Positions 11,001 to 13,764 of a stretch of 64,000 bases of DNA are shown here, piece after piece. The first letter of the stretch is position 1. Every line of letters begins with the position of its first letter. This DNA is from Halomicrobium urmianum. GTDB taxonomy: Archaea; Halobacteriota; Halobacteria; Halobacteriales; Haloarculaceae. The position numbers and the translations under genes are program-made. The notes under the pieces are model-generated. The model ran no database searches. It was given only the letters and a program-made list of their open reading frames with translations, and was not told the origin of the DNA. Where the stretch lies: assembly GCF_020217425.1 (NCBI RefSeq), contig NZ_CP084090.1, positions 992,001 to 1,056,000 on the forward strand. The letters are read 5' to 3'.

Positions 11001-11803
11001 ATGTCAGAACAGGTAGAACGCGAACTTGAGGTCGACCAGTACACGCTCGGTCTCGTCGGGCCGGACCAGGAGTGGGCGGGCACGGTCGCGGACGGCGGGA
11101 CGGTCAGGACGCACACGCCGGCGGGCTGCTGGGGGCCGATGATCACGCCGGAGTTCCGCGGCGGCCACGAGGTCACGCGGCCCATCGCCGTCGAGGGCGC
11201 GGAGGTCGGCGACGCCGTCGCCATCAAGATCAGAGATATCCAGGTGACGAGCATCGCGACCAGCACGGGGTCGATGAAGGAGCGCGACCGGGCCTTCGGC
11301 GACGACCCGTTCGTCGACCACAGGTGCCCCGACTGTGGCACGGAGTGGCCGGAGACGGTCGTCGAGGGCACCGGCGAGGACGCGGTCAAGTGCGCCGACT
11401 GCGGCGCGAACGCCTCCTCGTTCGGCTTCGAGTACGGCATCACGGCGGTGTTCGACGACGACTACGAGGTCGGCCTGACGGTCGACGCGGCGGCGGCCGA
11501 CGACCTCGCCGAGCGGGCCGACGAGGCGATGGCGCTGCCGGAGAACTCCCGCCAGCACGCACCCCTGCTGTACGCGCCCTCGGAGATGCCCGGCACGATG
11601 GGCCACCTCCGGCCGTTCCTCGGGAACGTCGGGACGACGCCGCCGACGGAGCTACCCGACTCGCACAACGCGGGCGACTTCGGCCAGTTCCTGATCGGCG
11701 CCGAGCACGACCAGGGCATGGAAGACGAGGACGAGCTCGAGGTCCGCACCGACGTCACATGGACGTCAACGAGGTCCGCGCGGGTGCGACGCTGCTCTGC
11801 CCC
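11001..11803 (+). pseudogene. Acetamidase/formamidase gene, 5' part, frameshifted and interrupted
   Basis: The ATG at 11001 opens an FmdA/AmdA-family amidase (LGLVGPDQEWAGTVADGG; HTPAGCWGPMITPEFRGGHE). The family normally cleaves short aliphatic amides to ammonia and the acid. The frame holds to about codon 252 (ELEVRTD), then shifts. The expected continuation HMDVNEVRAGATLLCPV is in another frame because the expected GAC-GGC-CAC reads GACGTCAC at 11751-11758. The gene then breaks after the CCC codon at 11803, where the tnpB element starts. A CxxC pair (DHRCPDCG; VKCADCG) sits in the middle, as in some haloarchaeal homologues. Confidence 0.85.
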
Positions 11804-11960
11804 GTCAACCGCCTCGGGGTCAAGCCCGAGGCTTGTCAGTGGACTCCCGTTCTAACCGAGTAACTCGGCAGGCGTGTACTCGCCGTTTACGTTCAACGCC
11901 CCTGACTTGAGGGCCAGTTGACTAGTGGCCCATCCACCGCGAGACTTCTGCCCGCGATGG
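11804..11960 (-). ncRNA. Candidate omega RNA overlapping the 3' end of tnpB
   Basis: In IS200/IS605 elements the guide-scaffold RNA of TnpB covers the end of tnpB and the right end. Here the corresponding stretch holds a strong GC hairpin at about 11811-11831, just inside the right end. The guide would begin at 11803 and read GGGGCAGAGCAGCGTC on the minus strand, which is amidase sequence. The extent is approximate and set by analogy. Sense-overlapping RNAs of this kind are known from Halobacterium tnpB genes. Confidence 0.4.
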
Positions 11961-13123
11961 ATATACCCACAGTATCGGTTGGCGACGTTCTTTGCCGCGT
12001 TGTAATCCGCGTTCACCTCATACCCACACGACTGGCACGCGAACTGCTTGTCGTCCCGGTTATCCTCGTGGGTAAACCCACAGTGTGAACACCGCTGGCT
12101 CGTGTATGCAGGATTCACGGAGTCCACGAACAACTCCGTTGATTCGACCTTGTACTCGACGAGTTCCACGAACTTGGCGTAGGCCCACTGTTGGAACTTC
12201 GACCCATTAGCGATGTTCTCACGGATGTGGTCAAGGTTCTCAAAAATGATGCCGTCCACATCTGCATCGTGCGCTTCGGCGATAAGGTCGTTGGCGTGGT
12301 TGTGCAACCAGTCCAGCGACCAATCACTGAACGTACTACCGATGGACTGAATCGTGAGGTGAGCCGACCGTGTACCTGTCTGTTGCAGACGGGCACGGCG
12401 TTGCTCGTACTGGTTACGCTTGTGAGTGAGATAGTCCGCACTGCCGATGAATGCGCCAGTGGAGGTGACGGCGAACGCGCCAGTCACGTTCAAGTCCACG
12501 CCGAGAACCACTCCGTTCTCGCGGGCGTCATCACGTGACTCGGCTTCTTGTCGTCCACTTGCGTCACCTTCGTAATCGGGGTTCTTCAAGGTGACGTGCA
12601 GGTAGAACGTGTCATCCTGCTCGTCGTATTGGAGCGTGGCGCTCGACGCGTCCCAGTCATCGCTCTCGTAGTATCTACCGAACGGCGTCTCCTCTCGCTC
12701 ACATTTAGGCGGGAAGACGTATTCGGCGGTGACTCTGCCGTTCGGCGTGGAGAGCGTGGCGTGATCGTCGTTGAACGTTGCGGAGCGTTTGTCGTACACG
12801 ACGCTCCACGAGTCAAACTCAGGTTGACTCGTCTTCTTGCCCTGCTTCAACTTCTCGACGCCTGCATCGACGGCGTCGATGGCGCGGTGGATGCCTTTCT
12901 GGACGAGGTTGGCGGTGAGGTCGGTTTCCTCCCGCAACCCGCTGTAGAGGGCGTCTTCGGCCTTGCTCTTGCTGGTGATGCAGAGGTCGTCGTAGCGCCA
13001 CGCCCACTCGCTCGTGTGGTTGGCGCAGTGCAGAAATTGTTGTTTGGTTTGATGGAGGTCGCTACGACGCTCCTCGGGTACGTCGAGTTTGATGGGTACG
13101 GTGCGCCGCGGCGCGTCGTCCAT
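11852..13123 (-). CDS. tnpB: TnpB RNA-guided endonuclease (IS1341-type)
   Basis: 423 aa from the ATG at 13121-13123; an upstream extension lacks family-like sequence. The RuvC catalytic residues are present in order: Asp in GVDLNVTGAFAV, Glu in IIFENLDHIRENI, and the last Asp in NADYNAAKNVANRY. A four-Cys zinc ribbon (RCSHCGF...FACQSCGY) lies between the last two, as in active TnpBs. TnpB is an omega-RNA-guided DNA nuclease, thought to favour element retention after excision. All key residues are intact, so the enzyme could be active. It is the only gene of the element. Confidence 0.92.
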   Translation of the reverse strand: MDDAPRRTVPIKLDVPEERRSDLHQTKQQFLHCANHTSEWAWRYDDLCITSKSKAEDALYSGLREETDLTANLVQKGIHRAIDAVDAGVEKLKQGKKTSQPEFDSWSVVYDKRSATFNDDHATLSTPNGRVTAEYVFPPKCEREETPFGRYYESDDWDASSATLQYDEQDDTFYLHVTLKNPDYEGDASGRQEAESRDDARENGVVLGVDLNVTGAFAVTSTGAFIGSADYLTHKRNQYEQRRARLQQTGTRSAHLTIQSIGSTFSDWSLDWLHNHANDLIAEAHDADVDGIIFENLDHIRENIANGSKFQQWAYAKFVELVEYKVESTELFVDSVNPAYTSQRCSHCGFTHEDNRDDKQFACQSCGYEVNADYNAAKNVANRYCGYIHRGQKSRGGWATSQLALKSGALNVNGEYTPAELLG

Positions 13124-13263
13124 CTGATATTCACATTTATCGCCAGTGCCTAATAAAGATTTAGGTGTGTGGGGAGTCGGCCTTGCTATCGAGCCTGGTT
13201 TGTCGATGGAGTGTCGGCTTCCTTCACGGGGGCAAGTCCCGTGGCATCCGCCTCGTACCACCT

Positions 13264-13764
13264 GTGAAGGTCGAGGGCGGCGGCATCTACGTCGGCGACA
13301 TGCACGCCAACCAGGGCGACGGCGAACTCGCGCTGCACACGACCGACGTCAGCGGCCACACCGAGTTCGACGTGGAGGTCGTGAAGGACCTCGACCTGGA
13401 CGGGCCGCTGCTCCTGCCCAACGAGGCGGACCTGCCCGACATCAGCGCGCCGTTCGACGACGAGGACGTCGAGAAAGCGGAGGCGCTCGGCGAGGAGTAC
13501 GGCGTCGACGTCGAGACCGACGTGGGTCCGATCCAGGTGATCGGCTCCGGCGCGACGATCAACGACGCGACGCAGAACGCCTTCGACCGCGCCGGCGAGT
13601 TGCTGGACATGAGCGAGGGCGAGGTCCGGACGCGCAGCACCTTCACCGGCGGCGTCGAGGTCGGCCGCCTGCCGGGGGTCGTCCAGCTCAACATGCTCGT
13701 GCCGATGGACAAACTGGAGGAGCTAGGGATGGCCCACCTCGTTCGCGAGCAGTACGACCTCTGA
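13264..13764 (+). pseudogene. Acetamidase/formamidase gene, 3' part beyond the insertion
   Basis: The amidase resumes exactly at the insertion border with VKVEGGGIYVGDMHANQGDG, the conserved metal-site region of the family (GDMHAxQGDGE). It continues through HTTDVSGHTEFDVEVV and GSGATINDATQNAFDRAG to the normal C-terminus ending in REQYDL. It is an open frame of 166 codons without lesions. It has no start of its own and is therefore a separated 3' fragment. Rejoining it with 11001-11803 gives a protein of about 434 residues, normal for the family. Confidence 0.85.

What the first reader, a model, noticed from the sequence alone, without database searches (positions are those of the whole stretch)
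11804..13263. tnpB-only element whose flanks rebuild a TAM and a guide match to the empty site
Seen: removing 11804-13263 restores the amidase codons CCC-GTG-AAG. In tnpB orientation the left flank ends in TTCAC, and the right end is followed by GGGGCAGAGCAGCGTC. In the empty allele these two join as TTCAC-GGGGCAGAGC. Established: TnpB uses an omega RNA whose guide is the flank next to the right end and cuts targets next to a TAM equal to the left-flank target. Inference: this element encodes a guide against the intact amidase allele, and TnpB has all RuvC residues. It could be a natural example of TnpB-driven retention in a halophile.
Basis: partly seen in the sequence, partly recalled or inferred. 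Interest (0 to 1): 0.75.

Follow-up and report, generated by a model that had tools for sequence, protein, structure and literature searches.

The report
tnpB-only insertion with guide to amidase
A 1,460-base mobile element that carries only a guide-RNA DNA cutter (TnpB) sits inside an amidase gene of a salt-loving archaeon, and its flanks would form a cutting target if it left; this is a well-supported but ordinary member of a known family of selfish elements.

Summary
Window 11804-13263 (minus strand) is a complete 1,460-bp tnpB-only IS200/IS605 element (IS1341 group) in an acetamidase/formamidase gene. Its exact ends recur in independent copies across Halobacteriales. TTCAC precedes 35 of 37 distinct insertion sites. 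Twenty-two amidase orthologues run uninterrupted across the junction. The 3' end encodes a covarying omega-RNA-like scaffold that reads directly into amidase sequence (GGGGCAGAGCAGCGTCGCAC). TnpB keeps D210/E295/D373 and is under purifying selection (median dN/dS 0.14). The genome holds no second TTCAC+guide site; the occupied locus reads TTGAC+guide, so it should be spared. Retention by cutting the empty allele is the best reading, but no RNA or cleavage was tested. Two corrections: the amidase also has a separate 1-nt deletion about 50 nt from the insertion, so removing the element does not restore the gene; and no sampled orthologue has TTCAC plus a perfect guide match, so the guide fits only the host lineage's own allele. 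The cognate TnpA is not identified. New member of a known kind; the most interesting inference is a gene drive among the many chromosome copies of a polyploid haloarchaeon.

The parts
11804..13263 (-). complete tnpB-only IS200/IS605 (IS1341-group) element, 1,460 bp
   Evidence: both ends recur exactly in independent copies; GC 0.56-0.60 against about 0.70 around it
11852..13123 (-). tnpB gene, 423 aa; RuvC triad D210, E295, D373 and CxxC...CxxC zinc ribbon
   Evidence: NCBIfam guided_TnpB 143.5 bits (cutoff 100); Pfam Cas12f1-like_TNB; triad invariant in 25 stop-free copies, median dN/dS 0.14
13264..13268 (-). TTCAC, target pentamer left of the element; inferred TAM and left cleavage site
   Evidence: TTCAC at 35 of 37 distinct insertion sites
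13225..13243 (-). left-end palindrome CACGGG-ACTTGCC-CCCGTG
   Evidence: read from the sequence; equivalent palindrome in other copies
11804..12003 (-). inferred omega-RNA scaffold region (last 200 nt, overlapping the tnpB 3' end); mature 5' end not determined
   Evidence: 18 of 55 pairs with compensatory changes, 97.7% of cells paired, 0/500 shuffles as high
11811..11832 (-). right-end hairpin GCCTCGGG-CTTGAC-CCCGAGGC
   Evidence: 7 of 9 pairs have changes on both sides across 36 copies
11804..11808 (-). right terminus TTGAC; one base from the TAM, so the guide template itself is not next to TTCAC
   Evidence: TTGAC or TTTAC in nearly all copies with intact right ends; own-genome search
11784..11803 (-). 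inferred guide and target GGGGCAGAGCAGCGTCGCAC (amidase sequence)
   Evidence: position next to the scaffold 3' end; right flanks differ at each insertion
11001..11803 (+). 5' part of the interrupted acetamidase/formamidase gene, with a 1-nt deletion near 11753
   Evidence: Pfam FmdA_AmdA; deletion absent in 22 orthologues
13264..13764 (+). 3' part of the interrupted acetamidase/formamidase gene
   Evidence: Pfam FmdA_AmdA; orthologues contiguous

Best explanation
A tnpB-only IS200/IS605 element (IS1341 group) inserted as single-stranded DNA 3' of a TTCAC in an amidase gene, probably mobilised in trans by a Y1 TnpA. Its 3' end is transcribed with tnpB and processed to an omega RNA whose guide is the adjoining amidase sequence. 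When a sister chromosome copy lacks the element, TTCAC and the guide match are rejoined, TnpB cuts there, and repair from an occupied copy restores the insertion. The occupied locus is spared because its guide template follows TTGAC, not TTCAC. Shown here: ends, target pentamer, empty-site junction, RNA-structure covariation, conserved catalytic residues, purifying selection, no second target in the genome. Inferred: transcription, processing, cleavage, retention, and the TnpA in trans.
For: Exact ends and TTCAC at 35 of 37 sites. 22 orthologues contiguous at the junction. Covarying 3' scaffold ending at the guide. guided_TnpB family hit and intact RuvC triad, median dN/dS 0.14 over 24 comparisons. 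In the whole genome the only match to TTCAC+guide with fewer than 3 mismatches is the guide template itself, with TTGAC. A related tnpB-only element has two copies 99.93% identical over 1,404 bp, both 3' of TTCAC, in the same genome, so such elements moved here recently. Five TnpA genes present. Literature: TnpB cuts next to a TAM equal to the TnpA target, and the donor joint is the proposed substrate (PMC8612924); AmaTnpB has TAM TCAC (PMC10278001); H. salinarum makes such omega RNAs (PMC12558985).
Against: No RNA or cleavage data. No Rfam match in the region. Two of 37 sites lack TTCAC (TGTAC, TACAC). No TnpA with this target was found; the tnpA elements with similar end hairpins use TCTAC. 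Part of the covariation lies inside coding sequence. The amidase was already, or became, a pseudogene by another route.
Confidence: 0.85

Rival explanations
1. An inert relic: the element inserted at TTCAC in the past but TnpB or its RNA no longer works, so nothing is cut or retained.
For: No near-identical copy in the genome; the closest DNA relatives are about 86% identical. The right-end hairpin lost one base against the consensus. TnpB proteins are very low or undetected in H. salinarum (PMC12558985).
Against: Open 423-aa frame, triad intact, median dN/dS 0.14; hairpin still pairs.
Confidence: 0.12
2. An exapted guided regulator or defence nuclease (TldR-like or antiviral) whose guide serves a host purpose.
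For: The protein is under purifying selection; a fixed guide would be needed for such a role and is present in this genome.
Against: Triad intact, unlike nuclease-dead TldR. Right flanks differ at every insertion of the family, so the guide is simply the flank. Only one 17-nt match among IMG/VR viral contigs, no more than chance by my estimate, and no phage record resembles the element.
Confidence: 0.02
3. The apparent junction is a coincidence or assembly artefact.
For: A 1-nt frameshift lies near the insertion, which might be a sequencing error.
Against: Both ends and TTCAC are reproduced by dozens of independent copies in other assemblies; 22 empty orthologues agree.
Confidence: 0.01

Closest known systems
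ISDra2 TnpB (Deinococcus radiodurans, IS200/IS605)
   Same: RuvC TnpB guided by right-end RNA; TAM equals the insertion target; insertion 3' of the pentamer without target duplication (PMC8612924)
   Different: TAM TTGAT instead of TTCAC; carries its own tnpA; distant sequence (E 1.4e-5 to 8bf8)
AmaTnpB
   Same: experimentally determined TAM TCAC (PMC10278001), contained in TTCAC
   Different: different host; relationship to this TnpB not tested
H. salinarum sotRNA / omega-RNA tnpB loci and haloarchaeal IS1341-type elements
   Same: haloarchaeal tnpB with 3' overlapping RNA, right-end hairpin and guide in the flank (PMC12558985); many tnpB copies without tnpA (PMC3119063)
   Different: this particular family, its TTCAC target and the amidase guide were not found described in the library searched
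Divergent tnpA-tnpB elements in the same genome (G000:C1:2406839-2408869)
   Same: same right-end hairpin AAGCCTCGGGGCTTGACCCCGAGGCGGTT and similar left end
   Different: target TCTAC, right end TTCAC, carries tnpA

Membership tests
IS200/IS605 family | subterminal palindromes, no target duplication, insertion 3' of a short fixed target | tested here: met
   TTCAC at 35/37 sites, no duplication at the junction, hairpins at both ends
IS200/IS605 family | mobilised by a Y1 TnpA | tested here: inconclusive
   five TnpA genes in the genome, none shown to use TTCAC ends; the tnpA elements resolved have other targets or ends
IS1341 group (tnpB only) | element encodes TnpB and no TnpA | tested here: met
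   1,460 bp with one gene; most full-length copies are about 1.39-1.52 kb
TnpB RNA-guided nuclease (OMEGA) | RuvC D/E/D triad and zinc ribbon | tested here: met
   D210, E295, D373 and Cys4 motif
TnpB RNA-guided nuclease (OMEGA) | right-end structured RNA adjoining a guide | tested here: met
   structure and covariation only; expression not tested
TnpB RNA-guided nuclease (OMEGA) | TAM-dependent guided cleavage | not testable with these tools
   needs a cleavage or interference assay
TldR (nuclease-dead TnpB repressor) | loss of RuvC catalytic residues | tested here: not met
   triad intact

The most novel reading that the evidence does not exclude
In a polyploid haloarchaeon the element acts as a gene drive among chromosome copies: after one copy gains the insertion, TnpB cuts the remaining TTCAC-amidase copies and gene conversion makes the insertion homozygous, which would help explain how tnpB-only elements persist without their own transposase.
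Probability: 0.3. Interest if true: 0.6.

Novelty: new member of a known kind. Interest (0 to 1): 0.33.

Why it matters
Retention of IS200/IS605 elements by guided cutting is known from bacteria, and in plasmids the same activity acts as a gene drive (PMC11870625). Haloferax volcanii carries about 20 chromosome copies that gene conversion equalises (PMC11276520), and haloarchaea hold many tnpB genes without tnpA whose movement is unexplained (PMC3119063). This locus gives a defined TAM, guide and empty allele with which to test drive among chromosome copies.

Tried and rejected
The AlphaFold model of TnpB was unusable (mean pLDDT 36), so no fold search was run. Rfam gave no match. Frameshift as a TnpB cut scar: rejected, since it lies about 50 nt from the TAM while cuts fall at 15-21 nt (PMC8612924). 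Guide aimed at viruses: one 17-nt match in IMG/VR, not followed up. Domesticated TnpB in a plasmid lineage with a constant right flank (L077, L078, L117-L120, L140, L142, L143): conservation runs on past the guide into what reads as an interrupted gene, so it looks like an old insertion inherited with the plasmid. The Meers 2023 paper on retention is not in the library; it is cited through PMC11870625.

Full report
Observation. The window belongs to an unnamed Halobacteriales genome of 4.25 Mb. The element at 11804-13263, minus strand, interrupts a gene of the acetamidase/formamidase family, whose two halves both match Pfam FmdA_AmdA. Joining the flanks gives CCC-GTG-AAG, and 22 distinct orthologues, the eleven protein-matched ones 71-82% identical, run through this point without a gap. 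The six other genomes of the genus that were searched have no match to this amidase.

Every one of these orthologues has one more base near window position 11753 than the focal gene. Joining the flanks therefore leaves the amidase out of frame: one frame reads up to RTDV, another from HMDVNE onward. The gene carries two lesions, or the deletion is a sequencing error; I cannot decide which. It lies about 50 nt from the TAM, outside the 15-21 nt range of TnpB cuts (PMC8612924).

Ends and target. A DNA search of 392 genomes of the order found many copies, the closest ones mostly matching from base 1 to base 1460; a protein search of GTDB genomes added others. Of 37 distinct insertion sites with a resolvable left end, 35 have TTCAC directly before the element, against a background frequency of 0.0012. 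The exceptions read TGTAC (L073, a copy whose tnpB has internal stops) and TACAC (L080). Sequence before TTCAC and after the right end differs between sites. Nearly all right ends finish in TTGAC, or TTTAC in the more distant copies of this genome; one (L064) reads TTGGC. Since orthologues without the element can carry TTCAC at this codon pair (L030, L031, L037, L039, L151, L154), TTCAC belongs to the target.

The nuclease. The 423-aa protein scores 143.5 bits on NCBIfam guided_TnpB (cutoff 100) and matches solved Cas12f and TnpB chains. D210, E295 and D373 are invariant in 25 stop-free copies, and dN/dS between the focal gene and 24 others has median 0.14; part of the gene also encodes the RNA, which may lower dS there.

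The RNA. An alignment of the last 200 nt of 36 copies gives a structure with 55 pairs, 18 of them with changes on both sides; 97.7% of cells pair, none of 500 shuffles reaches the observed measures, and sliding the partners destroys the pairing. The right-end hairpin alone has 7 of 9 pairs with compensatory changes. The structure was derived from this alignment, which favours it. Rfam has no matching family. The scaffold leads straight into amidase sequence GGGGCAGAGCAGCGTCGCAC.

Self and non-self. In the whole genome the pattern TTCAC+GGGGCAGAGCAGC occurs with fewer than three mismatches only at the guide template itself, where TTGAC replaces TTCAC. So the occupied locus should be spared and the excised locus exposed. 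Among orthologues in other genomes, those with TTCAC have 3-7 mismatches in 20, and those with only 2 mismatches have TTGAC or TCGAC instead. The guide is therefore directed at the allele of the host lineage, and homing into sampled relatives is unlikely.

Mobility. Most full-length copies are about 1.4-1.5 kb with tnpB alone. The genome holds 24 tnpB matches and five Y1 tnpA genes. A related tnpB-only element (50% protein identity) occurs twice with 99.93% identity over 1,404 bp at two TTCAC sites, so such elements moved recently. The tnpA-tnpB elements at G000:C1:2406839 and relatives share the right-end hairpin but insert after TCTAC and end in TTCAC. They are the best candidates for a helper, not a demonstrated one.

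Mechanism. By analogy with ISDra2, where the donor joint made of TAM and 3' flank is the proposed substrate and repair from the sister restores the element (PMC8612924), I infer retention. In plasmids the same activity works as a gene drive (PMC11870625). Haloferax volcanii has about 20 chromosome copies equalised by gene conversion (PMC11276520), so drive among chromosome copies is plausible here and untested.

Verdict. The finding is real and correctly read in outline; it is a new member of a known kind. The anatomy is close to certain, the retention function likely but not shown.

Noticed in passing
window about 11753: 1-nt deletion in the amidase, absent from 22 orthologues; a second lesion besides the insertion or a sequencing error.
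   Followed up: partly
L140, L141, L142, L143 (plasmids), L077, L078, L117-L120: A tnpB of the same family sits at one conserved place on haloarchaeal megaplasmids of several genera, beside a small ORF and near a TFB gene, with an almost constant right flank (C/G)AAGTGCCGCTTTCCCATACT (the flank of L141 was not resolved). Probably one old insertion inherited with the plasmid, which might arm it against element-free relatives.
   Followed up: partly
L101, L103 (right ends); similar stretch in L086, L121, L159, L165, L177: A short hairpin-rich stretch (GTCGT...CGTGATGACGAGACGC...GCGTCTCGAACCAC) is inserted in the terminal hairpins of several elements, reminiscent of the small mobile repeats reported to attack IS605-type ends in Haloquadratum (PMC3119063).
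   Followed up: no
G000:C1:804802-805992 and 1080949-1082139 (L135, L136): Two copies of a tnpB-only element 99.93% identical over 1,404 bp, both 3' of TTCAC: recent transposition without an own tnpA.
   Followed up: partly
G381:C1:218046-218190, G043:C1:497172-497335, G238:C26:48709-48883: Matches to only the last 145-180 nt of the element (scaffold and right end) without a listed match to the tnpB body; possibly omega-RNA-only remnants with their own guides.
   Followed up: no
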